A stretch of DNA of 64,000 nucleotides. Origin: Podaxis mareebaensis. Lineage: Eukaryota; Basidiomycota; Agaricomycetes; Agaricales; Agaricaceae. Both the position numbers and the translations under genes were made by a program. The stretch's first letter is position 1. Every line of letters begins with the position of its first letter. This document shows, in pieces, positions 8,396 through 63,079 of the stretch. The stretch lies in NCBI GenBank assembly GCA_018524725.1, contig JAEUWP010000120.1:158121-222120 (forward strand), read 5' to 3'. The notes beneath the pieces are model-generated. The model did not search any database. It had not been told where the DNA came from and saw only the letters and a list, made by a program, of their open reading frames with translations.

Positions 8396-9101
8396 ATGTC
8401 TCAGGTGCTGTTCATCCTCTTCACTCGGACATCCTAGATACTCACCGGGCTCCCCGTCCCAGCTATCAACTGGAATCTACAAAATCACCAGTGATTTTGC
8501 GCTGTCAGTCCATGCCTACCGTTTGATTGGTGGGCCTGTCAGCAGCGATATCCGTTTGGGACCATCCGACGACAGCCAGAGCAACAAGGCGAGTGCGACA
8601 GCGCCATACTTAAAAAAATCCTCATCTTTGTCGCCACTGACGTTTTAACAGTGGTTCATCCAACATCTTAACGGAATCACCTATCGCATCATGAACCTCG
8701 ACGTGGGCGACTACCCTCACCCTCCCAGTCCAGAAGTGCATCCTCTCGGCCCTCCGTCCGTTGTTGTGACATTGACATACTCTTGAACAGTTTGACTTTG
8801 TACACGGAGAATATCCCCAAAACGTCTGGAATGTCGAGTTCGCTGGAGACGATTCATATCATGTGAGTAAACCTTCTAGCTTGTTCTAGGTTCGCGATAC
8901 CCAGCTCATCTACGTCTTCAGATCTTGACGCCTGATGTCGATTTGGCCTGGACAGTTGGATCCGAGCCGTACCATGTACGAATGTCTTTTATCTGGCTAT
9001 ACCAGAGCACCGACTCATACTCCCACTTGCAGATTTTCCTTAAGCCAAATGTCGGCGAAAGAAACCAGAAGTTCAAGTTCGAGTACCTCGGCGAGGACTA
9101 A
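8396..9101 (+). CDS. Small beta-trefoil protein (lectin or I66-type protease-inhibitor-like), six exons
   Basis: Exons 8396-8404, 8463-8588, 8652-8735, 8791-8862, 8922-8975 and 9033-9101 give 137 residues and a stop. The start MSQ sits in a 9-nt coding exon with context AAACAATG. Three trefoil-like repeats are visible: LSTGIYKITSDFALSVHAY to DSQSNKW, then NGITYRIMNLDVGDY, then WNVEFAGDDSYHILTP to WTVGSEPYHIFLKPN, ending FKFEYLGED. Small basidiomycete beta-trefoil proteins of this size include ricin-B-type lectins and mycocypin/I66 serine or cysteine protease inhibitors, which act in defence; the sequence alone does not decide which. There is no signal peptide, as is usual for cytoplasmic fungal defence proteins. 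Intron 2 (8589-8651) uses a GC donor. The third intron boundary (8736-8790) is the least certain. Confidence 0.75.
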
Positions 9102-16103: not shown

Positions 16104-16373
16104 TACATTGTTAGGTTGGTCCTTATCACCGGTTGCCTAAGCTTTGCTAGGGGGCAGCTATCTCACTAGATGGTTCGCAGAGGCGCTAGGATCTAGCAAG
16201 AAGGATCACGATAAGAAGGTGGCGAGGCAAGTGTCCAGTTAAGTACACTCAGGAGGTCGAACGTCTATAAGTCGAGAGTATGACCAATAGAACATTTACT
16301 ACCACACTGATCGTGAGCTAACATCAATCCAGAGATAAAGCGAGAGCAATATTCTGAGATTTAAGAGAATATA

Positions 16374-16389
16374 GGAAGCTTGCGCTTCC
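16374..16389. repeat. Conserved LTR palindrome GGAAGC-TTGC-GCTTCC
   Basis: A 6-bp stem with a 4-base centre. The same element, with TTGT replacing TTGC after CpG loss, is seen in the LTR copies near 23170, 23735, 33060 and 40580. It lies 15-30 bp from the TATA-like box. Confidence 0.5.
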
Positions 16390-16403
16390 AGTACATGGGT
16401 GGC

Positions 16404-16410
16404 TATTTAA
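16404..16410 (-). promoter_or_regulatory. TATA-like box of the family A LTR
   Basis: On the element strand the sequence reads TTAAATAG, and it is conserved in every LTR copy as GCTATTTAAGCT on the + strand. It lies downstream of the LTR ORF, so the genomic RNA would start after the ORF. This would put the ORF in U3. Confidence 0.4.
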
Positions 16411-16654
16411 GCTTTACTTCTAAGGTCCAATTCTGGTAACTATGACGAAGTAATGCTAAGAGTCCGAGAGTCAAATAGAAGCATAACTACAGAGCGGGGC
16501 AAGACAAGAATAGAACAAGACAAGAATAGAAACAGAGACAGAAAAGGAAACTAACTAGCTAAGGAAATTGTACAAGATAGAGTTCAGGTGGAATACAGGA
16601 ATACAAGGCGAAGTGTCTGTAGCAAGATAGAAAAGGAGCTATTTACTGGTTATA

Positions 16655-17476
16655 TTACAAGTCCATATCGGGGTGAAGGCGTCTGTTAGAAGAGTCGGAT
16701 GAGTAGGAGTCGGGAGACGAGGCGGAACTGGGAATAGGGAAGTTGCCAGTTGAAGGCAACGAGTCAGGAGAATCTTCATGGAGGAAGATGAGGCTGCGGT
16801 GTGGGGACAATGACGATGATGATGATATATCACCAGTGACGTATGGCGGTGGATATGGAGGAGGATCACTGATGGGTTCTACTGGGTTTGACTCGTCGAT
16901 ACCTGGAACGTTGGAGTCAACACTGCGGAGGGGCGGAAGCTGAGTACGACAGGGAGGGATGGCCGGAGGTTCGTCGGAGTTAGGATCAACATGGTAGACT
17001 TCTACTTCTCGAAAGTAGAATCCGTGGGTGACTTCGTACTTGATGATGTGCAGGACCACTTCGGGTGGATACATCATGTAGGGGTGAAGGAATACAATGG
17101 GTTCTCCAGTGTAAGGGATCATCTTCCAACTGTGGGCCCAGGTGGAGTCAAAGTTGTTATGGATCGTTTGAACGTATAACCCATCGGGATCGAAGATGTG
17201 AGTGAAGGGAGCGTTCTCCCAAGCGATGCGTAATATCTCTGTCATCATGTGGTCAGTTTCATAGAAGAGTGGTCCAGGCGTTGGCCAGTCTTCAGAGAAT
17301 AAGGAGGCATGGCCAGGGAGGCAACAATTGGTGAAAGCTTCATTGCAGTAGCGAGTTGAGTCTTCAGTTGGTATACCTGTATCTTGAGTGGTAGAGCGAG
17401 AGGCGTTTGGGAGTCCAAGTTCATGGACTAATGCGTGATAGATGATATTGTGGCAGGAGGTACCAGGCTGGTTCAT
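16655..17476 (-). CDS. LTR-encoded ORF of family A, intact copy (unknown function)
   Basis: A 273-residue frame starts at the ATG formed by LTR bases 5-7 and is open to its stop beside base 826 of the LTR. The N-terminal ~170 residues are a conserved globular-looking domain with motifs NIIYHALVHELGLPNAS, FTNCCLPGHASLFSEDWPTP, DHMMTEILRIAWENAPFTHI, WAHSWKMIPYTGEPIVFLHP and HIIKYEVTHGFYFREVEVYH. The C-terminal third is Pro/Ser-rich with PPPYPPPY (two PPxY motifs), then SSSSSLSPH. I see no signal peptide, clear membrane segment or known catalytic motif. Homologous frames occur in the other LTRs. The open frame extends 47 codons upstream of the LTR (to 17617) by chance fusion with flanking DNA. 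I cannot assign a function. Confidence 0.75.
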   Translation of the reverse strand: MNQPGTSCHNIIYHALVHELGLPNASRSTTQDTGIPTEDSTRYCNEAFTNCCLPGHASLFSEDWPTPGPLFYETDHMMTEILRIAWENAPFTHIFDPDGLYVQTIHNNFDSTWAHSWKMIPYTGEPIVFLHPYMMYPPEVVLHIIKYEVTHGFYFREVEVYHVDPNSDEPPAIPPCRTQLPPLRSVDSNVPGIDESNPVEPISDPPPYPPPYVTGDISSSSSLSPHRSLIFLHEDSPDSLPSTGNFPIPSSASSPDSYSSDSSNRRLHPDMDL

Positions 17477-17791
17477 AACATACATAGGAAAACCGCCAAC
17501 AAGCAAGTAGGGAGAAACAGGGTCCGTTAGATCTTTAACAAAGTTTAGATTATGGTTAATAATAGATTGATGGCTAGTGGACAAAGTCGTGCGTGATAAA
17601 ATTGGACTGGAGTTCACACAGAAAGATGAGTTTCATCAGTATCTACTACAGAGGGGAAAGCACCACATTGCATACCTGGAGTTCACTACACAGAAAGATG
17701 AACTCCAGAATACAGGAAAATTTTGTAAGTACCATCTAATAATTTAGTCCTATTTACCTAAGTCTTCTGCTCAATTCATTCCCCCTGAAGC

Positions 17792-31263: not shown

Positions 31264-31772
31264 AGTGAGTTAGAACAAGTTTGTTTATTCCTTGTACAAC
31301 GAATAACTGTGCCACTGAAACGATAGTGGTAGTTACTGAGAAAGGAAGGTTGTCCAGCAGGTACATCATATAGGGATGAAGGAATATGATCAGCTCTCCA
31401 GCATAAGGAATCATCTTCCAACTATGGGCCCAAGATGAGTTAAAGTCATTGGTGATGGTCTGAATGTATAGGCTATTGGGGTTGGAGACATGAGTGAAAG
31501 GGGTGTTCTCCCAGGTGATGCACAGTATTTTGGTCATCATACAATCAGTAGAGTAGAATATAGGGCCAGGGGTTGGCCAGTCTTCAGAGAAGAGTAAGAT
31601 GTGACCAGGAAGGCAATAATTGGTAAAGGCTTCATTTCTATAGTGAGTTGAGTCATTAGCAGATTCATTGGTATTGGTAGTGGTATCACAAGATGCATTA
31701 GGGAGGCTGAGTTCATGGATGAGGGCATAGTAGATGATATTGGTGCATGATGTCCAAGACAAGTTCATAACA

Positions 31773-31789
31773 TTATCTCCTTCATTATT
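31773..31789 (-). other. Polypurine tract of A1
   Basis: The element strand reads AATAATGAAGGAGATAA immediately before the 3' LTR start TGTTATG. The equivalents are 46178-46194 in A2 and 61571-61587 in A3. It serves as the plus-strand primer in reverse transcription, and here is also coding (NNEGDN). Confidence 0.7.
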
Positions 31790-32795
31790 AGTGAGTTCTA
31801 TCTCACTATCTTCTACAGGGGTGGTAGTGGGGATAGGTGGTCTAGGATCTTCCACTGTTGATGTCAGAGAATACTGGTTCATAATGTCCATCAGCAGTGT
31901 GGATGGTTGTTGACTCTCAGTAGGGGTTCCTCTATAGGTAAGGGAGTGAATGTGAGTGGTGGCTCTGCTGAGGAGACTATGATGTTGTCAAATAGATGAG
32001 AGGGAGGCTGAAGGTATAGGAGTTGGTGTGTGAGGCCTGCCAGTTCTAGGTGTTGATCCTGTTGGCAAGGGCAGTAATAGTGGCATTGATGGGTTGGTGC
32101 AATTGCACACTTGCTGGACTTAGTGTTCTGGCATGGCAGGGAAGGTAGGGGGTTCCATTATAGTCCTGAGCTCATAGAGATGGTCAGGAGTCATCATGTC
32201 CTCTATGTCAATCAGTATACAGATACTGCTGGTATTGATTGGTCCTTTGTGGAAGAGAGCATGTAGGGTGAAGTAGTGGAGGAGGTCAGGATAGGAGTAG
32301 GTGCCTAGGAGGAGTGATAGGTTGGCCAGGAGGGCAGCTGTTGCCCAGATGGGAAATGTTGAGTGAGGTGTCAAGACTTCTTGGTATTCTTTGATGCAGA
32401 GGTACATAGCTGCTTGCATTGGTAGATTGTGGCAGTATAGTCTCAGTTTACAATGGAAGGCTAGGAATTTGATCAGGTTGAGGGCTTCTCAAAATTGGAG
32501 GCATGATATGTGGACTTAAAGTTGCTATAGACCCAGTATGTAGGGTGCAAGTCTCATGTAGAGTTGGAGGAGATTGTGGTTGTTGATTTGTTCATTGGGA
32601 AGATTAGGGTAGTACATCAGTTGAAAGAGTGTGAGCTCTGCTAAGTGTGTCAAGTCATATACTGACAATATTAAGGAGAAGTTGGGTAGTAGTGAATGAG
32701 CTCTGGATATTGCTACATAGTCCAGGAGAGATGTCATGGCTAAGACAAGCAAGTCAGGCCATTTCTATTGAGTGCAAAAGTTGAAGGAGCATTCT

Positions 32796-33821
32796 TGTTA
32801 GGATGATCCTTATCACCAGTCACCTAAGCTTTACTAGGGGGCAGCTATCTCACTAGATAGTTCACAGAGGCACTAGGATCTAGCATGAAGGATCATGATG
32901 AGAAGGTGGTGAGGCAAGTGTCCAGTCAAGCACACTTAAGAGGTCAAATGTCTATAAGTCAAGAATATGACCAATAGAGCATTTACTACTACACTGATCA
33001 TGAACTAATGTCAATCACAAGTTAGAGGTGAACAATAACTTGAGATTTAAGAATATAGAAAGCTTGTGCTTCCAGTACATGAGTGGCTATTTAAGCTTTA
33101 CTTCTAATATCCTAAGAAGGTAACTATGACAAGTAAGGCTACAAGTCTAAGAGTCAATGACAATGAGATATCTACAGTGATGTAGGGAGGTGGATATGGT
33201 AGGGGGTCTGCAGCAGGTTCTTCTAGGTTTGACTCATCAATACTGGGGATGTTGGAATCAATGCTTCAGAGTGGTGGGAGCTGTGTGTGATGGGGAGGAA
33301 TAGCTGGAGGGTCATTGGAGTTAGGATTGATGTGATAGACTTCTACTTCTTGAAAGTAGAATCTGTGAGCTACTTCATATTTGATGATATGGGGGATAAC
33401 TTCTAGTGGATACATCATGTAGGGGTGGAGGAATACTATAGGTTCTCCAGTGTATGGAATCATCTTCCAACCATGGGCCCAAGCAGAGTCAAAGTTATTG
33501 TGAATGGCTTGGACATATAACCCTTCAGGGTTGAAGACATAGGTGAAGGGAGCATTCTCCCAGGCAATGTGTAAGATCTCCATCATCATATGGTTGGTAG
33601 AGTAGAATAGTAGTCCAGGTGTCAGCCAATCTTTGGAGAATAAGGATGTGTGGCCAGGAAGGCAGCAATTGGCAAATGCTTCATTGCAGTAACAAGTTGG
33701 GTCTTCAGCTAATATGCCAGTATCTTGAGTGGTGTGGCAGGAGGCACTTGGAAGTCCAAGCTCATGGACTAGGGTGTGATAAATAATATTGTGATGAGGG
33801 GTACTGGGTGTACTCATAACA
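32796..33821 (-). mobile_element. Solo LTR L4 of family A inside A1 (TSD ATTCT), internally deleted
   Basis: The + strand runs TGTTAGGATG ... CTCATAACA, flanked by ATTCT at 32791-32795 and 33822-33826. At 1026 bp it is about 350 bp shorter than other LTRs; the loss lies near 33155, between the promoter half and the PPxY-coding part. The LTR ORF is open for its N-terminal ~180 codons (about 33814-33266). Confidence 0.9.
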
Positions 33822-34317
33822 ATTCTAGTAGAATGCATGAAAGTAACAATAGTCTCCCTGTAGATATTGAGGTTCTGTATCAAAAGTAGATTCCTTCAAA
33901 GAGTGGTGTCCTCAGAGAGGGATTTAACCCAGTCCAGAGATTCTCAGAGTCAAATGAGTTCAGAGTCAATGTCAGATATCTCACTAGAGATGGTCTGTAA
34001 TTCAATTGGGAATCCATTGAGGGGCCAAAGGAACTCTCTGGTGCTAATTCTTATGGAGAAGGCAGGGAGTGGGTGAAGTGGGTATGAGATGATAAATGGT
34101 ATGGCATCCTGTACAATCATAGTCATCATGATATGTTGTATGGTGAGGTGTTCTGTGAGGGCATTTAATCTGTCAGTATAGGTGGTAGAGGAGCTGAGGA
34201 GTGGAGAGTCACTGATAGAAGCAATGATATTACTTGTAGTAGTAGCAGAAGTAGATTGAGTAGTTTGCTGAGCTTCAGTTTGGATAGGTGAGGAGGTAGT
34301 GGATGACATTGCCAGTG

Positions 34318-40325: not shown

Positions 40326-41692
40326 TGTTAGGATGGTCTTTATCACTAGTCACCTAAGCTAGGGGGTGGCTATCTCAGTAGATGGTTCACAAGTGCTAGA
40401 ATTTACTGAGAAGGATAATGGTAAGAAGGTGGTGAGGCAAGTGTCCAGTTAAGCACACTTAGAGGTTGTACTTCTATCAGTCAAGAATGTGACCAATAGA
40501 GAGTTTACTACCATACTGATCATCAACTAACATCAATCACAAGAGTATGAAAAATATGGATGTGATTTGAGAATATTAAAAGCTTGTGCTTCCAGTACAT
40601 GGGCAGCTATTTAAGCTCTACACCTGAGGTCCTAATCAGGAGGCTATGATGATATAGTGCTAAGTCCAATAGTCAATCAGAAACACATAACTATGGAGCA
40701 GAGATGAGATGAAAATAGAAACAGACTAAAGACTAGAAATATACTGAGTCCAAGAATAGTTCAAGACAAGTTATAGGAAAGTAGCAAGAGGAGATAGAAA
40801 TAGAGAATAGTACTAGAGATAAGTCCATACATCCTGATCAGTAGACAAGGGTTTATACTACAAGTCTAAGTCCAGATGAAGTTGTCTGTTAAAGGAGTCA
40901 GAAGTAATTGAGGCAGGGGATGAGGCAGAAGAGGGAACTGTGAAGTTCCCAATGAGTAGGGAGTTAGAAGAGTCTGACTCAACCATGGGGCTGCAGTGCA
41001 GTGACTGTGATGACAAGAATGATGAGGAGGCATCTCCAGTGATGTAAGGAGGCAGGTAAGGAGGAGGTGGAGGTGGAGTGATGGCCAGTTCTTTGGGAAG
41101 GGACTTGTCAATGCTGGGGATATTGGAGTTGACACTGAAGAGTGGAGGAAGCTGGGTACACTGCAGAGGAATAGAGGGTAGATCCTTGGAGTTAGGATCA
41201 ATGCAATAGACTTCTACTTCTGAGAAGTAGAAGTCATGGGCAACTTCATATTTGATGATATGAGGGACAACTTCTGGCAGATACATCATGTAGGGATAAA
41301 GGAATATGATTGGCTCTCCAGTGTAAGGAATCATCTTCCAACCATGGGCCCAAGATGAGTTAAAGTCATTGGTGATAGTCTGAATGTATAGGCCATCAGG
41401 GTCAAAGATATGAGTGAAAGGGGCATTTTTCCAGGAAATATGCAGTATTTCAGTCATTATATGATTAGTAGAGTAGGATATAGGGCTAGGAGTTGGCCAG
41501 TCTTTGGAGAAGAGTGAGGTGTGACTGAGAAGGCAACAATTGGCAAAGGCTTCATTTCTATAGTGAGTCAAGTCATTAGCAGATTCATTGGTATTGGTAG
41601 TAGTGTCATGAGATGCATTAGGGAGGCCAAGTTCATGGATGAGGGCATGGTAGATGATGTTGGTGCACAATATCTGAGGTGAGTTCATAACA
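40326..41692 (-). mobile_element. 5' LTR (L5) of A1
   Basis: The LTR runs TGTTAGGATGG ... GAGTTCATAACA, 1367 bp. It carries the conserved palindrome, the TATA-like box and a complete LTR ORF. Confidence 0.92.
40858..41688 (-). CDS. LTR-encoded ORF in L5, intact (unknown function)
   Basis: A 276-residue open frame starts at the ATG in the LTR start TGTTATG. It matches the L1 product throughout: NIIYHALIHELGLPNASHD, HMTEILHISWKNAPFTHIFD-type block, WAHGWKMIPYTGEPIIFLYP, HIIKYEVAHDFYFSEVEVYC, then PPPPPPYLPPYITGD and an Ser-rich tail. It has a TNTNES insertion type shared with L2/L3 rather than L1. The frame stays open although gag and pol of the same element are broken and CpG is nearly gone. 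This could mean selection before decay, or only that few CGA codons were present. Confidence 0.65.
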   Translation of the reverse strand: MNSPQILCTNIIYHALIHELGLPNASHDTTTNTNESANDLTHYRNEAFANCCLLSHTSLFSKDWPTPSPISYSTNHIMTEILHISWKNAPFTHIFDPDGLYIQTITNDFNSSWAHGWKMIPYTGEPIIFLYPYMMYLPEVVPHIIKYEVAHDFYFSEVEVYCIDPNSKDLPSIPLQCTQLPPLFSVNSNIPSIDKSLPKELAITPPPPPPYLPPYITGDASSSFLSSQSLHCSPMVESDSSNSLLIGNFTVPSSASSPASITSDSFNRQLHLDLDL

Positions 41693-44805: not shown

Positions 44806-46177
44806 TATTAGGTTGGTCCTTATCACTGGTCACCTAAGCTTTGCTAGGGGGTGGCTATCTCATTAGATGGTTTGCAGAGGCACTAGGATCTAGCAAGAAG
44901 GATCACAATAAGAAGGTGGCAAGGCAAGTGTCCAGTTAAGCACACTCAAGAGGTCAAACATCTATCAGTCAAGAGTATGACCAATAGAGCATTTACTACC
45001 ACACTGATCATGAGCTAATGTCAATTGCAGAGTTAAGAGAATAATGCTGGGTTTGAGAATATAGGAAGCTTGCACTTCCAATACATGAGCAGCTATTTAA
45101 GCTTTACTTCTAAGATCCAAATCTGGTAACTATGACAAAGTAAGGCTACAAGTCCAAGAGTCAATAGAAGCATAACTATGGAGTGGAGCAAGATGAGAAT
45201 AGAAACTAAGAATAGAAACAGAGGCAAGAAAGGAAACTAACTAATTAAGGAAACAGTTCAAGTCTGAGTTCAGCTGGAATACAGGGATATGAGGTGAAGA
45301 GTCTGCAGTAACAAGAATAAGAAAAGAGAAGCTATTTACTGGTTTATACTACAGGTCCATAGCAGGGTGAAGATGTCCATTAGAAGAATCAGAAGAGTAT
45401 GAGTCAGGAGACGAGGCAGAACTTGGAATGGTGAAGCTTCCTGCTAGAGGCATTGAGTCAGACTCCTCTGACTCATGAAGGAAGATCAGGCTGTGGTGTG
45501 GAGAGGATGATGATGATGACAAAATGTCTGCAGTGACATATGGTGGTGGGTATGGCAGAGGATTGCTGATGGGTTCTTCAGGGTTTGACTCATTGATACC
45601 TGGAATGTTGGAGTTGATGCTGTGGAGGGGTGGAAGCTGAGTGTGATGGGAAGGGATGGCTAGAGGGTTGTCAGAGTTAGGATTGACATGATAGACTTCT
45701 ACTTCTTGGAAGTAGAATCCATGGGTGACTTCATATTTGATAATGTGCAGGACGACCTTAGGCAGATACATCATGTAGGGATGGAGGAATACTATGGGTT
45801 CTCCAGTGTAAGGTATCATCTTCCAACCATGGGCCCAGGTGGAGTCGAAGTTGTTGTGAATGGTCTGAACATATAATCCATCAGGATTGAAGACATGGGT
45901 GAAGGGAGCATTCTCCCAAGTGATGCATAATATTTCTGTCATCATGCAGTCAGTGGAATAGAAGAGTGGTCCAGGTGTTGGCCAGTCTTCAGAGAACAAT
46001 GATGCATGGCCAGGAAGGCATCAGTTAGTGAATGCTTCATTGCAGTAGTGAGTTGAGTCTTCAGCTGGGATACCAGCATCTTGAGTGGTGGAATGGGAGG
46101 CATTGGAAAGTCCAAGTTCATGGACTAGAGTGTGGTAGATGACATTGCAGTGGGAGGTGCTAGGCATGTTCATAACA
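44806..46177 (-). mobile_element. LTR L7, 3' LTR of chromovirus A2
   Basis: The LTR is 1372 bp and ends TTCATAACA followed by the polypurine tract. Its first bases read TATTAGG rather than TGTTAGG, a G-to-A change of the terminal dinucleotide. Left flank AGTAC (44801-44805) would be the TSD; its partner should lie beyond the window. Confidence 0.85.
45349..46173 (-). pseudogene. LTR-encoded ORF in L7, one stop
   Basis: The frame equals the L1 ORF from VIYHTLVHELGLSNASHS to HHSLIFLHESEESD and ends at the same place. It is interrupted by a single TGA at 46021-46023, where L1 has TGT; this change is a transversion, not CpG decay. PLPYPPPYVTAD keeps the PPxY motifs. Confidence 0.75.
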
Positions 46178-47698
46178 TTATCCCCTTTGTTATTAGCAAG
46201 TTCCATCTTGCTACTACTATCAGAGACTGGTGTCAGGTGGGGAGTGGGTGGTCTACATTCTTCCACTTCCAACATCAGAGAAGGGAGATTCATAATGTCC
46301 ATCAATTGTATGGATGTGTTCTGATTCTCTTGGCTGTCTCATCTGACAAGGGAGCAAATGCATGCAGCAGCTCTGCTGAGGAGTGAGTGTTGATCTCTGA
46401 TTGATGTGGGGGAGGCTGAAGGTATAGGAGTTGGGGCATGTGGTCTGCCTGCTTTGGGTGCTGATGATGTTGTCAGCAAGGGTGGAGATGGTGGCATCAA
46501 TGGATTGGTGCAGTTGCACACTTGATGGACTTGGTGTTTGGGCACAGCAGGGAAGGTAGGGGGTTCCATTATAGTCCCTAGCTCATAGAGATGATCAGGA
46601 GAGGTCACTTCCTCTATGTCAATCAGTATGTGGATACCACTGGTGTTGATCAGCCCTTTGTGGAAAAGTGTGTGAAGGGTGAAGTAATGGAGGAGGTTGG
46701 GCTGGGAGTGGGTGCCTAGGAGGAGTGATAGGTTAGCTAGGAGTGCAGCAGTTGCCCAAATCAGAAAGGTGAGGTAGGGAGTCAGGATGTCATTGTATTC
46801 TTTGATGCAGAGCCACATAGTGGCTTGCATCAGTAGATCATGACAGTAAAGCCTCAGTTCATGATGGAATGCTAGCATCTTGATGATGTCTAATGCTTCC
46901 CTGAATTGGAGGCATGAGATGTGGACTTGGAGTTGGGGGAGTCCTGGAATGTAAGGTGTGAGTCTTGTGTAGAGTTGAATCAGGTTGTGATTGTTGATCT
47001 GCTCATCAGGGAGATCAGGGTAGTGGAGGATTTGAAAGAGAGCTAGTTCTGCTAAGTGTGTTGAGTCATAGACCAAGTTTATCAATGAGAAGTTTGGTAG
47101 TAGTGCTTGAGCTCTCAATGTTGCTATGTAGTCAAGGAGAGATGTTGTGGCCAATACAAGCAAGTCAGGCTGTCTCTATTGAGTTCAAAAGTCAAATGAG
47201 CATTCTAGCAGAATGCATGATAGTAGCAATAGTTTCCCTGTAGATGTTGCAGTTTTGAACCAAAAGTGGATTCCTTCAAAGAGTGGGGTCCTGGGTGATG
47301 GAGTTAACCCAGTCCAGAGATTCTTGGAGTCAAATGAGTTCAGAGTCAAGGTCAGATACTTCACTAGGGAGGGAAGGTAGTTTGATTGGGGATCTGGCAT
47401 TGATTGGCCAGATGAATTCCCTGGTTCCAATATGGGTTGAGTAGGCTGGGAGCAGGTGGAGTGGGTGCAAGATGAGGAAGGGTATGGCATCCTGCATGAT
47501 TGTAGTCATTGTGATGTGTTGTATGGCAAGGTGTTCTGTAATGGCATTCAGTCTTTCTTGGAAGGTGGTGGGCATCTCAATGAGGGAAGGGAGGCTGTTA
47601 GAGTTATGGCTAGTGCTTGCAGTAGCATTGGGAGGTAATTGAGTATCTTGCTGAGCTTCAGTTTGAGTGGTGGGTTCTTGGTTGTTGGTGGTTGACAT
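46178..47698 (-). pseudogene. Extra 3' ORF of A2 (env position), in two frames
   Basis: The first part starts at ATG 47698 (MSTTNNQEPTTQTEAQQDTQ), contains LNAITEHLAIQHITMTTIMQ and SLPSEVSDLDSELI, and ends in ETA plus stop near 47170. The second part, in the +1 frame (about 47490-46178), has ALFQILHYPDLPDEQINNHN, PQLQVHISCLQFREALDIIK, ATMWLCIKEYNDILTPYLTF, WATAALLANLSLLLGTHSQP and ELGTIMEPPTFPAVP. It then continues through VEECRPPTPHLTPVSDSSSK and the polypurine tract into the LTR ORF. Stops interrupt it. Function unknown. Confidence 0.7.
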
Positions 47699-47704
47699 CT
47701 CTGC

Positions 47705-50700
47705 TAGTTAGTGAAGTTTGTTCTTCCTTTTATAAGTGTTTAGGATTTGCTGTGCATTAGAGAATGTGGACTGCAGTTCCCAAGTATTTTTGGAGTGTGG
47801 ATAGCCAGTCCACTTGACTAGGAATTTGAGGCAGTTGTGCAGTCATTGATGATTTAGGATTGCTTCAACTTCATAGTGTTCTTCATCATTGCACAGTTCT
47901 GGCACAGGTTGCAGGTAGTGTTTGCTGTATAGGTTATTCTCGGTTACTGGAGTGAGAAGAGTGGCATGAAATATGGGGTGAATTCACCATGTTTTGGGTA
48001 ACTTTAGTTTGAAGTTAACTGCAGATATCTTCTTAATGATTTTGAAAGGCCCTTCATGTTTCAGGGTAAGCTTCCTTGATTTGACTTGTAATGGAAGATT
48101 GCAAGTGTCTAACCATACTTGGTCTCCTACAGAGTAGGTTGGGAGTTGATAGTTGGCTGTGCATCTTGCCATAATTTGACAGGCATGGTTATGTGCTTGA
48201 ATAGTGCATTGGTGGGCTTCAGTGAGGCAGTTCATGCAGTCTTCTGCTGATGGATTGTTTGTAGGTTCCATTTCTGTTGGGAAGGCCTTTGGGGTGTATC
48301 TGTAAAGTAGCTGGAATGGAGTTTCAGAGCGTCCAGCATGGGGATGGTTGTTGTGGCAGAATTCATAAATCAGGAGATACTTGCTCCATTCATTTGGGTC
48401 ACTTGAAGTGGCAATGGTGAGATAGGTTTCAATTTCCTGGTTGAAGCATTCAGTGGATCCATCAGTTTGTGGATGGTATGCTGTAGAGTAGGTGGGCTTG
48501 ACATTGAGGAGTTTGTACAGTTCTTACATTGCTTTGGATATGAATCAGGGGTCACAATCTGAGATGATCTTATTGGGAAGGCCATATTGCAAAAATAGGT
48601 GGTTGACCAAAATAGAAGCAATGACTTGGCTGTTAGCAGTCTTCATAGTAGGGGCTAAAATTATCCCCTTTATTAGGCCATAGTCCACTATGGCCAAAAT
48701 AGAGTTGTATCTATGGGATGGTAGTAGATCTGTGATGAGATCCATAGAGATTTGCAAAAAGGGCCATGCTGATTGGGGTGCTGGGATTGGTTGGTAAGGC
48801 AGCTTTTCTGGTCACCTAATGATCTTATGCTACTGGCAAGTTGGGCAGCCTTTGACATATTCAGTGATGTAGTCCTTCATGGCTGGCCAGTAAATATATT
48901 CAGCAAGTTTTTGAAGTGTTTTGGCTATTCCGGGATGTCCTGCAGTCTGATGATCATGTATACATTAGAGTAATCTGTGGCATAGTGATGGTTCATTGGG
49001 GATCAGTATTCTTTTCCCATGAGTGGGTAATTCTTGATCTGGGGTGTCATCATCATTGGGGTCTATCATTTCTCAGTACTTCTTGATGACTTGTTTGTCT
49101 TCCTTGGTAATTATGGCAATCATTGACTTGTCAAAAACAGTAATATCATGGTTCTTGATTTCTTGGGGTGTGAGGTCAGGTTGTCTTGACAGTGCATCCA
49201 CTGGTCCATTCTTTCAACCAGGTATGTGCTTGATCTTGAGATTGGGCTGGAATCATTGCATGAATTGTACCCAGTGAACTTGTCACTTATTGAGGGTTTG
49301 TGGTTCCTTGTAGTGGGATAGATTTTCATGGTCACTCCAGATGATGATTTCATGGGGCAATCCTTCAAGGTAGTGGCACCAAGTGCACAGTGCAATAATA
49401 ATAGCTAGCCATTCAAGTTCTGAGCAATGATAGTTGCACTCTGTTGGAGTAAAGGCTTTGGAATGGAAGGCTATTGGGTGACAAATGCTGTTTTCATCTT
49501 TTTGGTAAAGCACAGCTCCTGCTGCATATTGTGATGCATCAGTTTCAATTTCAAAAGGTTTTGAGGGGTCAGGTGTGATAAGAATAGGTCAATCTTTGAA
49601 TTTCCTTTTGAGTTCATTAAATGCTTGTTGGTGTTCAGGTTTCCATTCAAACTTGATGTTCTTGGACATTAAAGTGTTTAGGGGTGCTGCATACTTGGAG
49701 TAACTCTGAATGAAGTAGCAGTAAAAATTGCAAAATCTGATAAATTTTCAGACATCTTGAGTCATTTTGGGTATAGGCCAGTTCTTGATTCCTTCAAGTT
49801 TGGCAGCATCCATTTTGATGGAGGTAGGAGTGACTACAGCTCCTAAGTATTTGACTCACTGTTTCTCAAATTCACATTTCTCAGGTTTGAGGTATAGGTC
49901 ATGTTTTCATAGTATCTCAAGTACTTCTCAAGTGATTTGTCATAGTTCTTGTCATGTTTTGGCATGGACAAGGATGTCATCCATGTAGACTAGCACTTGT
50001 CCTCTACAGATGAGATAGGTGAATATATGGTCCATCATTGATTGGAACATTGCTGGGCTGTTACACATTCTGAAGAACATGACTGTAGGTTTGAATAATC
50101 CCCTTGGGGTTTTGAAGGCTCCTTTCTATTGGTCACCTTTGTGGATGCAGATGTTGTTGTATCCAGCTTGTATGTCAAATTTTGTAAACCATTTTGATCC
50201 TTTGAGTTTGTCAAGTAGTGAGGAAATGAGGGGTATCAGGTAGGCATTCTTGATTGTATGTGTGTTAAGATAGTGGTAATCTTGACAGGGTCTTAGTTTG
50301 CCATCTTTCTTCCCTATAAAGAAGAAAGGTGATGCCATTGGTGATTCAGATGGGTGAATATATCCTTTTTCAAGGTTTTCATCAATGAACTTGTCAAGTT
50401 CTTGCATTTTGATAGGTGATAGTCAGTAGGGTTTGAATGATTTGGGTTCAAATGTGTCTTTGAGCTCAATTTTATGATCCCAGGGTCTGCTTGGTGGGAA
50501 TTGGGATGCTTTCTTCTTGGAAAATACATCAAGGTAGTCATGAAATTCTTTTGGAACAACTTTTCATGGGTCAGATTCTTTCTTCTGATCTCCATACTGT
50601 TGTGCAATTACTTGTGAGGCATTTGCTTTGAAGTTGATTTCAAGGAATGATTTGGGTTCCAGGGTAATGTAGTTGATTTCATCAGTTTCTTCTTCTTCCA

Positions 50701-51211
50701 TGGTTTGAAGAAGTTCTTGATAAATATATCCTGGGTTGTTGTTTCTCCAGGTGAGTGTTTGCTTTCTCCAGTCAATGTCTGGGTTATGTTTCATGAGCCA
50801 TGGGGCTCTGAGGATGATCTTCAGTTTGCCAAGTTTGGTAACTCATGTTGTAACTGGTGTGATCCAGTTATCAATCTTGATGTTAAGTAGGCATTCTTGA
50901 GTAGTGGTTCCTACTTTATTAATTGATCCATCAGCATTACAAACTTCAATTGGTTTAGGTAAGGGTTGAGTTTCAAGGTTCCACTGATTGATTAAACTTT
51001 CATCAATGAAGTTTTCTCCTGCTCCTGAGTTGAGCAAGGTAAGTGTGTTGATTGGCTGCTGTTGAGGTAGGTGTATGTATGTTGGAAGATAAAGGATTTT
51101 GTTGTGTTGTTGTGTGGTAACTTGGTTGATCATCTGAATAGGTTTTTGATAGTCAGGTGGATTTCTTGGTTGAGGGTATCCATTGAATGAATACTCAGAA
51201 TTGCTGCTCAC
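47705..51211 (-). pseudogene. A2 pol: protease, RT, RNase H, integrase, chromodomain (decayed)
   Basis: The protease site reads TLLNSGAGENFID (about 51015-51050); the catalytic Asp found in A1 (LLDSGAG) is Asn here. RT spans about 50407-49750 ([17 protein letters not shown]; box VYMDDILVHA near 49985, intact). RNase H lies at 49513-49285 (AFHSKAFTPTECNYHCSELE, IIIWSDHENL). Integrase spans about 48900-47985 (MDLITDLLPSHRYNSILAIV, GLPNKIISD, and VGDQVWLDTCNLPL in the C-terminal part). The chromodomain is at about 47870-47710 (FLVKWTGYPHSKNTWELQ) with a TGA at 47843-47845. Confidence 0.87.
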
Positions 51212-51230
51212 AATTTGTGAGTCATCAGAA

Positions 51231-52967
51231 CTAGATGCGACACTGGCTAGTCCCTCCTGGTAAAATCCTTTCCTTTCCCTTTTGAGTCTTCTTTGTCACC
51301 TGACTCTTCTTTGATGTTGTTGAGTCTTGACTTTTGATGTTTTTGGAATCATTTTCTGTGTTGGTTTCAGGAATAGGAGGCTTAGTTCTTTGATCTTTAC
51401 TTGTCGAGCAGGCATGATTGTGCATAATGTTTGCCAGTCTTGCAGATGAAGCATAAACCTTTGCTTCTGAGTTCATGGAGTTCTTGAGGTAGGAGGTTGT
51501 TGAGTTCTGCTTTGATTCTTGCTTTGATGATTTGATTAACTTATTCATTTGAGTAGTAGTCATCATTGGATGATACTTCTGAAGAGTCTTCTCCTGATGA
51601 CCATTCAGATTCACTATCTGTTCTGTCAATATTATTGAGCTCATTCATGAGGATGTTGTCAATGTCTATGGGACCATATCCTGGGGGGTTACAAGTTGTT
51701 TGAGATAGTGTATATGCTTGGAAGTTGTAGCTTTTACTTGAAATACAAGATTTTGAATGTTTCTTGCAATGGGAGTTTGAGTAGTGTTGGTACAAATTTC
51801 TTGGGCAATCAGTAAATGATTGAAAGTGTGCCAGTCCTCCTGTGTGGCAGGCTACTGTGTAGACAGCTTTAGGGTCATTTTCTGCAGGGCTCTGGTTAAT
51901 GATGCCTTTGTGGTAATACAGGTCCAGTCCTTTAAGGAATAGTGTGACTTTGGTCTCATTATGACTAATGCCTGCTGAGGTGCATAGGCTTTTGAACTGG
52001 TTGATGTATTCTTTGATTGGTTTATCATTCTGTTTGAGGTGTGTGAGGCAGTCAATGCTGACAATGGTGGTAGAGGCTTGTTTAAATGAATTATCCAACT
52101 CAGTGAAGAATTGGGCAAGGGTCTAGGTTGTGTTGAAGGTGTTTCTAGTGGTATGGGTGGTGACATAGGCTTCTTTCCATGTGGTGGCTGGTCCTCACAT
52201 GTTAAGGAGGGCAAACATGATCTTGGCTGAGTTGGAGGAGAGATTGGTCAGTTGGCATGCATAGTAAATTTGTAAGTCTCTCTTCCATCATGGGTAGTTG
52301 GATGGGTCTCCATAGAATGGTTCAGGTTTCTTGACCTTTGGGTCTCATGAGGTCAACATGGTGGAATGTACTGGCTGAGGTGATTGGGTTCTAGAGGTTG
52401 TATTGGGATACAGGGTAATTGGATTGTAGGGGTCTGGTCTGTGTTGTCTAATAAGGCCATTGAGGATTGATTCTTGGTCAGTTGGTGAGGTAGTTCTAAT
52501 ATATTCCTGTTGTTCAGGGGTGAAGGTGTCATACCAGGCTTGTTGTGCTGGGGTGAGGATGAGTGGGTGGAGGATGGGCTGTTCTGGGGACTCTGGTTGG
52601 TTACTTCCTGAGTGGTATGAGTGTTCAGACTCAGTGTCAATGTGCTCAGGATCTCCTTTGTATTGAAGGAGGGGGTTTGGCTGGGTAGATTGTTCTGGTG
52701 TTGTAACTGCTTGGCTAATTCACTCAGAGCACTTTCCAAGAGAAGCTTGTCTGATAAGTCCTGCTGTGGTGCTGGTGGAAGGTTTGATGGGTGGACGAGT
52801 GTTGTGAAAGGATTCAGCACATTGGATGGGCAGGGGTGGTGAATATGGGGTTTGCTCTGGTGAGTGGGTATGAAGCTGAAGTATGGGATCTGAGGGCAGG
52901 GTTGGTTGGTGTTGTCTAGATTGTTTGGGTTTTTGTTGCTTTCCTTTTTCTGAGAACAGGGTGGCAT
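51231..52967 (-). pseudogene. A2 gag with zinc knuckle (decayed)
   Basis: A start is at 52967 (MPPCSQKKESNKNPNN). The N-terminus is rich in Pro, Gln and Ser. The capsid-like region (about 52210-51850) has FKQASTTIVSIDCLTHLKQN, FKSLCTSAGISHNETKVTLF and LKGLDLYYHKGIIN. The C-terminal zinc knuckle CFICKTGKHYAQSC lies near 51425-51465, and an acidic stretch precedes it. There are stops and frame changes. Confidence 0.8.
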
Positions 52968-53544
52968 TGAGGAATCTGTGGTGAGGGAGGTGTTGTGGGT
53001 TGGTTGCTGACTAGCTTGGACAAAATCCTATCTTGATCTTGAGTATCTCTGGGACTTCTTGTGGTACAGTTTTAATCTTTCTTGAATCCAGTTGTGCTTC
53101 TGGATGGTGGATGATTTCTGTAATGCACAAAATCCACAATTGTACTAGGGGTCTATCTTTCCTTTCTGGTTACCCTTCAGTCAGATACTCCTTCTTTGTA
53201 CATGGCTTAGAGTTATTCCACAGCATGGCTATTGTCTCCCACAGCTGGTTTAGTGCTTGATGTGGGTGCTTTTCTCCTTTACTTGTTGTCCAAGATAATG
53301 GCCAGTTATCCAGGCATTCAAGGATTGGCTCTGCCCTTTGTTATCAGTCTGGAGTAGGTCATGGTTGTTTTCTGGGTTTGCCAAGGTTTCTACAATCTGT
53401 CTAAATTGCTTTAGATGGAGCAGTTTCCTCTCTCCAATCTGTGGGCCTTTAAGATCTAGGTTGCTATCCTGATCACTGTGTTTGGGCATATCTCCTGTTG
53501 TAGATTTGCAGTCTATTCACAGATCCAGGCTAGTGTTGGCTAGG
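52968..53544 (-). other. A2 untranslated leader
   Basis: This 577-bp non-coding stretch lies between the L6 LTR and gag and is similar to the A1 leader over most of its length. The part next to the LTR differs from A1 and appears shortened, so no primer-binding site could be assigned. Confidence 0.5.
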
Positions 53545-56377
53545 TGTTAGGTTGGTCCTTATCACTGGTCACCTAAGCTTTGCTAGGGGGCAGCTATCTC
53601 ACTAGATGGTTCACAGAGGCACTAGGATCTAGCAAGAAAGATCATGGTAAGTAGGTGGCAAGGCAAGTGTCCAGTTAAGCACACTCAGAGGTCAAACTTC
53701 TATCAGTCGAGAATATGACCAATAGAGAGTTTACTACCACACTGATCATGAACTAACATCAATCCAGGGATAAAGCAAAAGCAATATTCTGAATTTGAGA
53801 ATATAGGAAGTTTGCACTTCCAGTACATGAGCAGCTATTTAAGCTTTACTTATAAGGTCCAGATTGGTAACTATGATGAAGTAAGGCTACAAGTTCAAGA
53901 GTCAATAGAAGCATAACTATGGAGTGGAGCAAGACAAGAATAGAACTAGGATAAGAATAGAAACAAGACTAGGAAGAAAACTAGTTAACTAAGGAAATAG
54001 TTCAGTCTGAGTTCAGCTGGAATACAAGGATACAAGATGAAGAGTTGTAGTAGAGAGATAGAGAGAGAAACTATTTATTAGTTTATATTACAAGTCCATA
54101 TCAGGATGAAGATGTCCATCAGAGGAGTTGGAGGAATATGAGTCAGGAGATGAGGTAGAACTAGGAATGGTGAAGTTCCCTGCTGAAGGCATTGAGTCAG
54201 AGGAGTCTGACTTGTGAAGGAAGATGAGACTGCAGTGCAGAGAGGATGATGACAATGACAATATGTTGGCAGTGACATATGGTGGTGGGTATGGAGGAGG
54301 ATCACTGATGGGTTCTTCTGGGTTGGATTTGTCAATGCCTGGAATATTGGAATCAACACTGCAGAGGGGTGGAAGCTGAGTATGACAGAGAGGGATGGCC
54401 AGAGGCTTGTCAGAGTTAGGATCAACATGATAGACTTCTACTTCTCAAAAATAGAAACCATGTGTGACTTTGTACTTGATGATATGTGGGACAACCTCAG
54501 GTGGATACATCATGTAGGAATGGAGGAATACAATTGGTTCTCCAGCATAAGGGATCATCTGCCAACCATGGGCCCAGGTGGAGTTGAAGTTATTATGGAT
54601 CATTTGGACATATAACCCATTAGGATCGAAGACGTGGGTGAAGGGAGCATTCTCCCAAGCAATGCATAATATTTCTGTCATCATGCAGTCAGTCTCGTAG
54701 AAGATTGGTCCAGGCATCAGCCAGTCTTCAGAGAATAGGGAGGCATGGCCAGGGAGGTGACAGTTGGCAGATGCTTTGTTACAGTGATGGGGCAGCAAAT
54801 GGATTACTATAGAATATAACAGATAAAGGTGATAATGTGAAGTAAAATATAAAATAGTATTACCAAAAGCCACACCCTAGCAAGTTTGTGGGGGACTCTG
54901 ATTCAGAAATGAAAGGGATAACAACATGACATGAGATTGAAACACTTGCTAGGAATGTAAAAAGGTAAGGGTAGGAGTTGTGAAGGAGTGGGGGAGTGTG
55001 TATGTTCTTGGTGTTATCTTCACTTAACACAAGGATTTCTGTGTACTGTTGCAAGGTGGTCTTAGCAATTTCCTAGTTCAAGACTGAACTGGACTGTTTG
55101 TTCTTTAAATTGACAAGTCTCTGATGTAGCATCACTACAATACACAAGTACCAAAGAATCAAAGGTAGTGAGAGTGATCCCTCGCTACTACTAGAAATAT
55201 ACCGACTTGTACCAATAAGTGCTCTGACCAGCAATACACAGCTGCAATGTACTCCTAGTTAACCCTGCTAAGGCTAACTTCTGATTCTCAACTTATGGAA
55301 ACTTCTGGGGGAACTACTGGGTCTTTGTTCTGGCTCTCGCTAGTAGGTCACATTGACTGAAGAAAACTCCTATAAACACTTAACTATCACTCAGTGATTG
55401 TCAAATATTCAACAACCCTCTAAGCAAAGCTTAGCAGGAATTCCCTTGCTTCACCTCACGTCATTGAGGGGTTTTTATATTATAAGTTGGGGAATGATTA
55501 CAATCTAGTGTTACAATGTTCTGACTCAATAAAGGATTATGTATACAAGTACAGAGTTATATAATTTATAATCTACATTGTTCTCTGCCCAATAAGATGT
55601 TCTGATAGTGGACGCATGGACTGATATAGTATGTGTGTATGATATTTATCAGCTTTTCACTGACCAAGTCTACTGTATGTATAATACCCTTCACCATTTC
55701 TGACTCAACAGTATTATGAATCTTCATTCTCTGTGCTTCTCACTAAGCTGATTCAAATCACTGACTGTTAATGAGTTGTGTGGTTTTTGACATCTCACAA
55801 GGTCAATGAATCACTTCCAATGAGGTGACACATCAATCCCTTAGTGGAGTAGTTCTCTCTTCTGACTCAGACTTTATCTGCTGAGGTCATAGCTGTGCTA
55901 GGTCTTTGGTACACAGTGGCAGCTAAGCATACTATTGAACGAGATAATCCTTAGTGTCACTTGTGCAAGAAAGGATCCTCATGAGGATGTGATTTGTTAA
56001 GAACTGACTCCGGATGGGGGTGGACCATGGGTGGCCAAGGGCAGATGCATGTGGACATGGGGTTGAGGCCTTGGCTTCAACTTATGTGTTGCACCCCTCT
56101 GATACCATGGTGGCCTCACTTGACCAACTACAGACTCGAGTGGATGAGCGGACAGAGAATGGATGAAGACAGGACAAGCCTGGACTGAGGGGTGGACTCA
56201 TAGCAGACAAGCAGGAGAGAGGAGAAAGATCTAAGTTGATATTCTGACTGAGGACTACAAACAGTAGTGATCCTACTTATATACTAGCAGTCAGGATAAA
56301 GTCTGGAGAGTAGTAGTTAAGTGAGAAACAATAGTAACTACTCAAAGGAGAATACCAGAAACATGTGAACTGATAAC

Positions 56378-60839: not shown

Positions 60840-61570
60840 CTGATAACCATGGTGAAGATACCAGAATAAGGAGTCTGTCCACAAAGCATCCAGATGTCCA
60901 AAAGGATGGGGGCAGAAGTGAAACATCAGATAACGGAAAAACCAAGATAAGTGGATGATAATCAAGGGTAAAGGAAAAAGCCATGGATAAATGGAAAAAC
61001 ACAAGATAATCAGATAGAAGATCTGATAAGGGGAATAATGGAAGGAACAGGGACAGATAAAAGTATTTGCAAGGGGAAAGGTCCAATGGAAAGGGAAGAA
61101 AGGTTAAACTGAATATGATCCACAGAATCCAGGTTGTAACCAAGGCTCCAAGAGTTTAATGGGCATGAAGTGAAGTCTGTAACATGATTAATGAATAGCC
61201 TTCAGTAATATAATCCTGACTTCAGTGATGATACTGAATCAATGGCATATAGATGTGTCTAGTCAGTACAGTTTTCCTGATCTAGGTGCCTAGATTATAC
61301 TACTGGGTTAACCCTCATGAAGTACTGAGGCTTCTTCTAGTGTGGGTTCATAGTCTGTTATTCTAGCCATAAAACTTGATTGTATTATAATCTAGGTACC
61401 ATTTTCATGACTGAAAACAGTTTAGGCCATAACAATGGTAGCAAGTTGGGTCTTCAGCTGGTATACCTGTATCTTGGGTGGTAGAACAGGAGGCATTGGG
61501 AAGTCCAAGCTTGTGGACTAGAGTGTGATAAATGATGTTGCAGTGGGAGGTACCAGGCTGGTTCATAACA

Positions 61571-63079
61571 TTATCCCCTTCGTTATTAGCAAGTTCCATC
61601 TTGCTACTACTATCTGATACTAGTGTCAGGTAAGGGGTTGGTGGTCTAGGATCTTCCACTTCCAATGTCAGAGAAGGGAGATTTGTGATGTCTGTCAGTT
61701 GTGTGGAGGCATTCTGATCTCATTGGACAAGGGAGCAAATGCATGTAGTGGCTCTGCTGAGTAGGCTGTGTCATTCTCTGATGGATGTGGGGGAGACTGA
61801 AGGTATAGGTGTTGGAGTGCATGGTCTGCCTGTTTCAGGTGCTGATGATGTTGTCAGTGAGGGTGGAGATAGTGGCATCAATGGATTGGTGCAGTTGCAC
61901 ACTTGACAGACTTGGACTTCAGGCATGGTGGGGAAGGTAGGAGGTTCCATTATAGTCCCTAGCTTGTAAAGATGATTGGGTGAGGTGACTTCCTCTGTAT
62001 CGATCAGTATGCAGATACCACTGGTGTTGATTGGTCCCTTGTGGAAAAGTGTGTGAAGGGTGAAGTAATGGAGGAGGTCAGGCTGGGAGTGAGTGCCTAG
62101 GAGGAGTGATAGGTCAGCTAAGAGGGCAGCAGTTGCCCAAATCAGAAATGTCTGGCAGGGAGTCAGGACATCATTGTATTCTTTGATGCAGAGCCACATA
62201 GTGGCTTGCATTGGTAGATTGTGACAATAGAGCCTCAGTTCGCAGTGGAAGGCTAGCATCTTGATAATGTCTAACACTTCCCTGAATTGGAGGCAGGAGA
62301 TGTGGACTTGGAGTTGAGGGAGTCCTGCTATGTAAGGTGTGAGTCTCATGTAAAGTTGAATCAGGTTGTGATTGTTGATCTACTTGTTGGGGAGGTCTGG
62401 ATAGTGGAGGATTTGAAAGAGAGCTAGTTCTGCTAAGTGCATTGAGTCATAGACCAATTTTATCAAGGAGAAGTTTGGTGGTAGAGCTTGAGTTCTCGAT
62501 GTTGCTACATAGTCAAGGGGAGATGTTGTGGCCAATACAAGCAAGTCAGGCTGTCTCCATTGAGTTTGAAAGTCGAATGAGCATTCTAGCAGAATGCATG
62601 ATAGTAGCAATAGTTTCCCTGTAGACATTGCAGTTCTGAACCAAAAGTGGATTCCTTCGAAGAGCGGGGTCCTGGGTGATGGAGTTAACCCAGTCCAGAG
62701 ATTCTCTGAGTTGAACGAGTTCAGTGTCAAGGTCAGATACTTCACTAGGGAGGGAAGGTAGTTCAATCAGGGATCTGGCATTGATTGGCCAGATGAATTC
62801 CCAGGTTCCAATGTGGGTTGAGTAGGCTGGGAGTGGGTGGAGGGGGTGCAAGATGAGGAAGGGTGTGGCATCCTGTGCAATTGTGGTTGTCATGATGTGT
62901 TGTATGGCAAGGTGTTCTGTGATGGCATTCAAGCATTCTTGGAAGGTGGTGGGTGTCTTGATGAGGGAAGGGATGCTGTTAGGGTTGTGGCTAGTGCTTG
63001 TAGTAGTGTTGGGAGGTAATTGAGTATCTTGGCAAGCTTCAGTTTGAGTAGTGGGTTCTGGGGTATTGGTGGTTGACAT
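61571..63079 (-). pseudogene. Extra 3' ORF of A3 (env position); first part intact
   Basis: The first frame (63079-62546) is fully open: 177 residues from MSTTNTPEPTTQTEACQDTQ to RLSNSMETA, with LNAITEHLAIQHIMTTTIAQ and VQLRESLDWVNSITQDPALR. The +1 frame overlaps it (about 62766 onward), containing CSFDFQTQWRQPDLLVLATT, then LAELALFQILHYPDLPNK and PQLQVHISCLQFREVLDIIK, with stops at 62380 and 61771. It then passes PPTPYLTLVSDSSSKMELAN and the polypurine tract into LTR L6 as NNEGDNVMNQPGTSHCN. Low-complexity Pro/Thr/Ser segments flank a hydrophobic helical-looking centre. No family recognised. Confidence 0.7.

What the first reader, a model, noticed from the sequence alone, without database searches (positions are those of the whole stretch)
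16655..17476. A protein-coding ORF inside the LTR of a fungal Ty3/gypsy chromovirus
Seven LTRs of family A (L1-L7) have defined ends and TSDs for most. On the element strand each begins TGTT-ATG (or a close variant), opening a frame of about 273-276 codons that fills 60% of the LTR, upstream of the only TATA-like box. The frame is fully open in L1 and L5, has one stop in L7, and is broken only by insertions or deletion in L2, L3, L4 and L6. The product resembles nothing I know. A U3-located ORF recalls mammary tumour virus layout, but I know of no described fungal parallel.
Basis: partly seen in the sequence, partly recalled or inferred. Interest (0 to 1): 0.9.

Follow-up and report, generated by a model that had tools for sequence, protein, structure and literature searches.

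The report
Retrotransposon gene running into its LTR
A fungal jumping gene carries an extra protein gene that begins after its enzyme gene and runs on for about 270 codons into its terminal repeat, where selection has kept it a protein sequence; the layout resembles accessory genes of complex retroviruses.

Summary
The frame at 16655-17476 (minus) is real and protein-coding, but it is not a self-contained LTR gene. It sits in a solo LTR (16109-17480, TSD TACAT) of a self-priming, chromodomain Ty3/gypsy element of about 10.25 kb, probably in a basidiomycete. In 18 of 18 fetched 3' LTRs the frame continues in phase upstream, through the polypurine tract, into the region after pol, as the end of a 729-codon frame (ORF4); 27 of 62 genome rows match all 729 codons. 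Other LTRs hold the last ~273 codons because U3 is copied there. Over 48 LTRs: pN/pS 0.22 in frame (0.15 for transversions) against 0.60-0.74 in the non-ORF LTR; distinct indels are multiples of three in 9 of 9 (ORF) and 6 of 64 (outside). Another frame, ORF3 (~210 codons), starts 9 nt after the pol stop and overlaps ORF4; its first 50 codons show little constraint. No Pfam, PDB or protein-database relative of ORF4 was found; structure models were unusable. The 38 open copies all keep a PPxY motif. Layout is nef-like rather than sag-like. Function is inferred only: a non-envelope accessory protein, perhaps a WW-domain adaptor.

The parts
16109..17480 (-). Solo LTR with TSD TACAT (16104-16108, 17481-17485)
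16655..17476 (-). LTR frame of the finding: the last 273 codons of ORF4, without the upstream part
40858..41688 (-). Open LTR frame of a diverged subfamily (276 codons)
44808..46177 (-). 3' LTR of a near-complete copy
45352..47547 (-). ORF4 of that copy, crossing the 3' LTR boundary at 46177/46178; 4 TGA and 1 TAG inside
47069..47698 (-). ORF3 region of that copy, starting 9 nt after the pol stop
47708..51292 (-). pol region (protease to integrase with chromodomain), decayed
   Evidence: domains seen in another copy
51384..52992 (-). gag region, decayed
53545..54780 (-). 5' LTR of that copy (matches from LTR position 137 on)
61435..62928 (-). ORF4 residues 1-500 of another copy, cut in the LTR part; 4 TGA and 1 TAG
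31334..32797 (-). ORF4 residues 114-601 of an older, broken copy

Best explanation
The LTR frame is the C-terminal 37% of an accessory gene (ORF4) of a self-priming Ty3/gypsy chromovirus. ORF4 lies after pol, overlaps a smaller frame (ORF3), runs through the polypurine tract and ends about 830 nt inside the U3 of the 3' LTR. Reverse transcription copies U3 into the 5' LTR, so 5' and solo LTRs carry a redundant frame upstream of the element's own promoter. Shown here: anatomy, phase across the junction, coding constraint. Inferred: ORF4 is translated from the 3' part of the element RNA, by a spliced mRNA or by reinitiation after the pol stop. Inferred more weakly (about 0.3): ORF4 is a non-envelope accessory protein whose U3-coded acidic Ser/Pro tail uses PPxY motifs to recruit host WW-domain proteins (Nedd4/Rsp5 type) and so alters trafficking, ubiquitylation or RNA handling in the element's favour. 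The confidence below is for the anatomy and the coding claim.
For: Phase: 18 of 18 3' LTRs read through the junction without a stop in the stretch shown. Length: 27 of 62 rows match all 729 codons, one without a stop; 81 of the 105 stops in those rows are TGA, as CpG decay of CGA gives (my sums). Selection in the LTR part: 48 LTRs, informative sites 100/57/199 of 274 per codon position in the frame and 64/61/64 of 180 outside; pN/pS 0.22 in frame, 1.11 and 1.47 in the shifted frames, 0.60-0.74 in the non-ORF LTR (chi-square p 6e-35 and 0.93). Indels multiples of three in 9 of 9 against 6 of 64. Internal part of ORF4: pN/pS 0.20 at 8012-8450 and 0.45 at 8451-8890, lowest of the three frames in each (18 rows). 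Post-insertion decay looks neutral: LTR pairs of 8 elements give 0.46, inside the simulated ranges 0.38-0.71 (CpG decay) and 0.38-1.05 (random transitions). U3 position: PBS complement at LTR ~1100, frame end at 829. PPxY: at least one in 38 of 38 open copies, two in 25.
Against: No transcript or peptide evidence was available. 47 of the 48 LTRs come from loci fetched because of protein matches or lie beside them, which biases the indel count. The ORF4 frame is not constrained at its first ~54 codons (7530-7690, 0.83), so its true start is uncertain. The 20-residue block with the PPxY motifs is no better conserved on average than the whole LTR part (0.86 against 0.89), so the motif may be unimportant. 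One fully open copy of 27 full-length rows was seen. No relative in other species was found, so conservation is shown within one genome only.
Confidence: 0.8

Rival explanations
1. Stand-alone LTR gene of the mammary tumour virus sag type: translation starts at the LTR's own ATG and yields a 273-residue protein, the upstream frame being incidental or a second product.
For: The ATG at LTR positions 5-7 is present in 48 of 48 aligned LTRs.
Against: Methionine has a single codon, so its conservation says little. The frame is in phase with internal sequence in 18 of 18 3' LTRs, and the internal part is constrained in that frame.
Confidence: 0.08
2. ORF3 and ORF4 are one gene: a short intron or a frameshift joins the ORF3 frame to the ORF4 frame, and the protein still ends in U3.
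For: Constraint passes from the ORF3 frame (0.38 against 0.83 at 7530-7690) to the ORF4 frame (0.25 against 0.80 at 7851-8011). By eye, a 52-nt GT..AG stretch near 7920-7971 would join the frames in phase (sequence; not tested).
Against: At 7691-7850 both frames are constrained (0.29 and 0.33) and non-CpG changes are fewer than in the neighbouring ORF4-only stretch (22 in 245 nt against 24 in 113 nt, p 0.002; the intervals were chosen after seeing the data). This fits two overlapping genes better.
Confidence: 0.3
3. ORF4 is an RNA-handling regulator like CERV of Cer1 (nuclear export of genomic RNA) rather than a WW-domain adaptor.
For: Same position, after pol; [quoted passage not shown] A donor-like GTAAGC at element position 1409 is present in 8 of 8 elements.
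Against: No sequence similarity was tested between the two; splicing is not shown.
Confidence: 0.25
4. ORF4 is an envelope-like protein.
For: Third-gene position after pol.
Against: The strongest 19-residue hydropathy window is 1.51, below the usual cut for a membrane span (recalled as about 1.6); no Pfam match.
Confidence: 0.05
5. Chance or base composition keeps the frame open.
For: The sense strand is C-rich, which lowers stop frequency (skew).
Against: Codon-position bias, frame-specific pN/pS and indel phase.
Confidence: 0.01

Closest known systems
Fungal chromoviruses (Ty3/gypsy with an integrase chromodomain)
   Same: gag, pol with RT, RNase H, integrase and chromodomain; 5-bp TSD; PBS complementary to the LTR (self-priming, recalled from Tf1/sushi-type elements). 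[quoted passage not shown]
   Different: No coding sequence inside the LTR is mentioned in the passages that I saw; the figure and supplementary tables were not seen.
Lentiviral nef (recalled)
   Same: Starts upstream of the 3' LTR, crosses the polypurine tract, ends in U3.
   Different: Different host kingdom; no sequence relation found (Pfam, no match); twice as long or more (recalled).
Mammary tumour virus sag (recalled)
   Same: Long frame in U3.
   Different: Here the frame belongs to a gene that begins after pol; no Pfam match.
CERV of Cer1 (C. elegans Ty3/gypsy element; PMC10309623, abstract and passages)
ORF3 genes of bdelloid rotifer LTR elements (PMC5408684, passages)
   Same: Varied accessory ORFs after pol.
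   Different: They are esterase, exonuclease, coiled-coil, membrane or env-like ORFs; the phrases 'into the LTR' and 'within the LTR' do not occur in the text.

Membership tests
Ty3/gypsy chromovirus | RT and RNase H followed by integrase | tested here: met
   RVT_1, RT_RNaseH, Integrase_H2C2 above cut-off; rve 32.1 bits, just under its 32.6 cut-off
Ty3/gypsy chromovirus | Chromodomain at the integrase C-terminus | tested here: met
   PF00385, 59.5 bits, E 2.9e-16
Ty3/gypsy chromovirus | Two LTRs and a short TSD | tested here: met
   LTR pairs 91-97% identical in 8 elements; 5-bp TSD by eye in 8 of 8
Self-priming (Tf1-like) LTR element | PBS complementary to the 5' end of the element RNA in the LTR | tested here: met
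   13 nt in 7 of 8 elements, 10 nt in one; shuffles mean 6.5, maximum 11. That the RNA starts there is inferred
nef-like U3 gene (layout only) | Frame crosses the polypurine tract into U3 | tested here: met
   18 of 18 3' LTRs; end at LTR 829
nef-like U3 gene (layout only) | Separate spliced mRNA | not testable with these tools
   no RNA data
Mammary tumour virus superantigen | Sequence similarity | tested here: not met
   no Pfam match up to E 10 for ORF4 or up to 0.1 for the LTR part
Retroviral or gypsy envelope | Membrane span | tested here: not met
   best 19-residue hydropathy 1.51, a crude test
PPxY late-domain / WW-ligand protein | Conserved PPxY | tested here: inconclusive
   at least one in 38 of 38 open copies, two in 25, but the block is no better conserved than average
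PPxY late-domain / WW-ligand protein | Binding to a WW domain | not testable with these tools
   needs a binding assay

The most novel reading that the evidence does not exclude
A fungal chromovirus lineage has independently evolved a complex-retrovirus-like 3' gene region: two overlapping, partly dual-coded accessory genes, the second crossing the polypurine tract into U3 and ending in a PPxY adaptor that recruits the host's Nedd4/Rsp5 and ESCRT machinery, so that the element manages trafficking or spread between fused hyphae in a virus-like way without an envelope.
Probability: 0.15. Interest if true: 0.88.

Novelty: new variant of a known kind. Interest (0 to 1): 0.62.

Why it matters
LTRs are usually treated as non-coding regulatory DNA. 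Here 60% of the LTR is under protein-level selection, so LTR-divergence dating, solo-LTR annotation and gene prediction can be misled: 5' and solo LTRs offer many 273-codon frames that look like genes but are only the ends of one. It also suggests that coding into U3, known from vertebrate retroviruses (recalled), has a fungal parallel, and it gives a family of more than 100 copies in which to ask what an accessory gene does for a fungal retrotransposon.

Tried and rejected
Rejected: chance or composition. Rejected: host selection on inserted copies, because LTR pairs of one element differ as neutral decay predicts. Left open: intron or frameshift joining ORF3 and ORF4.

Led nowhere: Pfam for the LTR part and ORF4 and ORF3; PDB sequences for ORF4 (one match, E 1.8, taken as chance); the protein database for ORF4 residues 150-729 and for the LTR part (residues 1-149 and ORF3 were not searched; the same database gives 7440 pol relatives); IMG/VR scans with ORF4 and pol (nothing confirmed); two structure models, mean pLDDT 32.6 and 34.6; a 13-base pattern in the window. 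Relatives in other fungi could not be read as DNA: the genome collections offered are prokaryotic, and says G000 has no relatives there.

Literature: eight searches. No title or abstract listed by them describes a fungal element whose coding frame runs far into the LTR; the tool cannot search for a prime sign, and only listings were seen except for passages of five papers (PMC10787394, PMC2774666, PMC2864245, PMC5408684, PMC10309623). Repbase and most subscription journals were not searched, so absence from print is not shown.

Rows dropped: one search found 78 BLAST pieces; 48 full-length LTRs were kept and 30 partial ones dropped; L001, L009 and L030 were left out as duplicates. Searches used the 38 of 48 copies with a frame of at least 268 codons. 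One search shows the 10 and 12 of 18 stretches in which the searched motifs were found. One search used 32 copies.

Full report
What was checked. The frame at 16655-17476 (minus) is there: 273 codons from ATG to stop. Its LTR spans 16109-17480, is bounded by TACAT on both sides and has no internal element sequence beside it, so this copy is a solo LTR. The window also holds a near-complete copy of the family (3' LTR 44808-46177, 5' LTR 53545-54780, minus strand) and several broken ones.

How common. The assembly has 36.95 Mb in 429 contigs. A search with the 273-residue protein scored 141 of 323 candidates, at 69-100% identity; by my count 81 rows have no stop over the matched part and 60 have one or more. 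That search favours intact frames, so I also searched with the non-coding part of the LTR. Of the 40 best places (of 242 candidates, the window copy included), 34 have a full or near-full frame listed, 25 of them without a stop and 9 with one; 6 have no such row. A query with the diverged copy at 40858-41688 scored 140 of 322 candidates, at 60-77% identity apart from itself.

Element. Eight elements with full LTR pairs have LTRs of about 1370 bp, 91-97% identical within a pair, a total length of 10,234-10,287 bases, and 5-bp TSDs by eye; a ninth pair gave only partial repeats. Pol has RT, RNase H, the integrase zinc domain and a chromodomain above their cut-offs, with the integrase core just below. 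Gag shows a CCHC knuckle by eye. The sequence directly after the 5' LTR is complementary over 13 nt to LTR position 1100-1116 in 7 of 8 elements and over 10 nt in the eighth; 1000 shuffles gave a mean of 6.5 and a maximum of 11. This is the mark of self-priming (recalled) and would put the RNA start near LTR position 1100, about 29 nt after the start of a TTAAATAG box (read). The frame ends at LTR position 829 in the reference copy, so it lies in U3. Named protein-database relatives of pol are mostly Agaricomycetes at 45-50% identity among the 120 of 7440 listed (class recalled); I infer a basidiomycete host.

The frame does not begin in the LTR. Of 48 full-length LTRs, 18 are preceded by the polypurine-tract end, and in 18 of 18 the last internal bases read in the same phase into the LTR frame without a stop in the stretch shown. 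In fetched stretches the open frame reaches 713 and 729 codons in two copies. A genome search with the 729-codon translation gave 62 rows; 27 cover residues 1-729, one without a stop. The 105 stops in those 27 rows are 81 TGA, 14 TAG and 10 TAA (my sums). The window's own long frame is 45352-47547, with 4 TGA and 1 TAG.

Selection. In 48 aligned LTRs, informative sites by codon position are 100, 57 and 199 of 274 in the frame and 64, 61 and 64 of 180 outside (chi-square p 6e-35 and 0.93). Pooled pN/pS is 0.22 in frame, 1.11 and 1.47 in the shifted frames and 0.60-0.74 in pseudo-frames of the non-ORF LTR, so the fair yardstick is below 1. With transversions only it is 0.15 in frame and 0.66-1.10 outside. 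Distinct indels are multiples of three in 9 of 9 in the ORF and 6 of 64 outside (p 5e-8); most copies came from a protein search, which biases this count but hardly the substitution pattern. Between the two LTRs of one element, 577 of 644 differences are CpG-type, transitions to transversions are 630 to 5, and pN/pS is 0.46, inside simulated ranges for CpG decay (0.38-0.71) and random transitions (0.38-1.05). Constraint therefore acts on the lineages that transpose, not visibly on inserted copies.

Upstream frames. A conserved ATG lies 9 nt after the pol stop in the 10 of 18 stretches where the motif was found; it opens ORF3. ORF3 ends at about codon 210, at a stop that is TGA in the majority and CGA in 13 of 32 copies, so its end is uncertain. 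ORF4 opens at an ATG directly after an in-frame stop in the 12 of 18 stretches where the motif was found. By stretch, pN/pS for the ORF3 and ORF4 frames is 0.63 and 0.53 at 7379-7529, 0.38 and 0.83 at 7530-7690, 0.29 and 0.33 at 7691-7850, 0.80 and 0.25 at 7851-8011, and for ORF4 then 0.20, 0.45, and 0.21 and 0.27 in the LTR. So the first 50 codons of ORF3 and the first ~54 of ORF4 show little or no constraint. In 32 copies non-CpG changes number 24 in 161 nt at 7530-7690, 22 in 245 nt at 7691-7935, 6 in 52 nt at 7936-7987 and 24 in 113 nt at 7988-8100. The contrast of the second with the last has p 0.002, with intervals chosen after the fact. I read this as two overlapping genes; one gene joined by an intron or frameshift is not excluded.

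What the protein is. No Pfam family, no credible PDB relative, no database hit for residues 150-729 or for the LTR part. Structure models were too poor to use. ORF4 has a Leu-rich middle, a Pro/Ser-rich linker, the U3-coded core, and a tail with 27% Ser, 18% Pro and net charge -12; the best 19-residue hydropathy is 1.51. At least one PPxY is present in 38 of 38 open copies and two in 25; both tyrosines are invariant in the 38, but the block around them averages 0.86 conservation against 0.89 for the whole part. PPxY is a known WW-domain ligand and retroviral late-domain motif (recalled). This is the only functional lead and it is weak.

Mechanism. If the RNA starts near LTR position 1100, only the 3' copy of U3 lies in the element RNA; ORF4 is then translated from the 3' part of that RNA and its U3 part is copied into both LTRs at reverse transcription (established retroviral logic). 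How ORF3 and ORF4 are expressed is unknown; reinitiation after pol, or splicing from a donor-like GTAAGC present in 8 of 8 leaders (one of four such sites), are candidates. The closest functional analogue that I read about is CERV of Cer1 (PMC10309623, abstract and passages).

Verdict. Additional ORFs in fungal chromoviruses are known (PMC2864245, PMC2774666, passages), so I call it a new variant of a known kind.

Noticed in passing
window 24903-28661 (-): Two neighbouring frames on one strand, an endonuclease (27345-28661, Exo_endo_phos_2) and a reverse transcriptase (24903-27236, RVT_1), look like a LINE-type element.
   Followed up: no
window 31362-34168 (-): An LTR of the same family, with its middle missing, sits inside ORF3/ORF4 of an older copy.
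   Followed up: partly
LTR pairs of 8 elements in G000: Differences between the two LTRs are overwhelmingly CpG-type transitions (577 of 644), pointing to methylation-linked or RIP-like decay in this fungus.
   Followed up: partly
element positions about 7730-7880 (ORF3/ORF4 overlap): The least variable stretch of the region in all three codon phases over 32 copies; dual coding or an RNA signal.
   Followed up: partly
L048:1550-2621 (+): Frames that look by eye like the gag of a different Ty3/gypsy family, on the other strand.
   Followed up: no
window 40858-41688 (-) and relatives in G000: A diverged subfamily keeps a U3 frame of the same length; the 11 closest other copies (68-77% identity) all carry stops, so it looks older.
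   Followed up: partly
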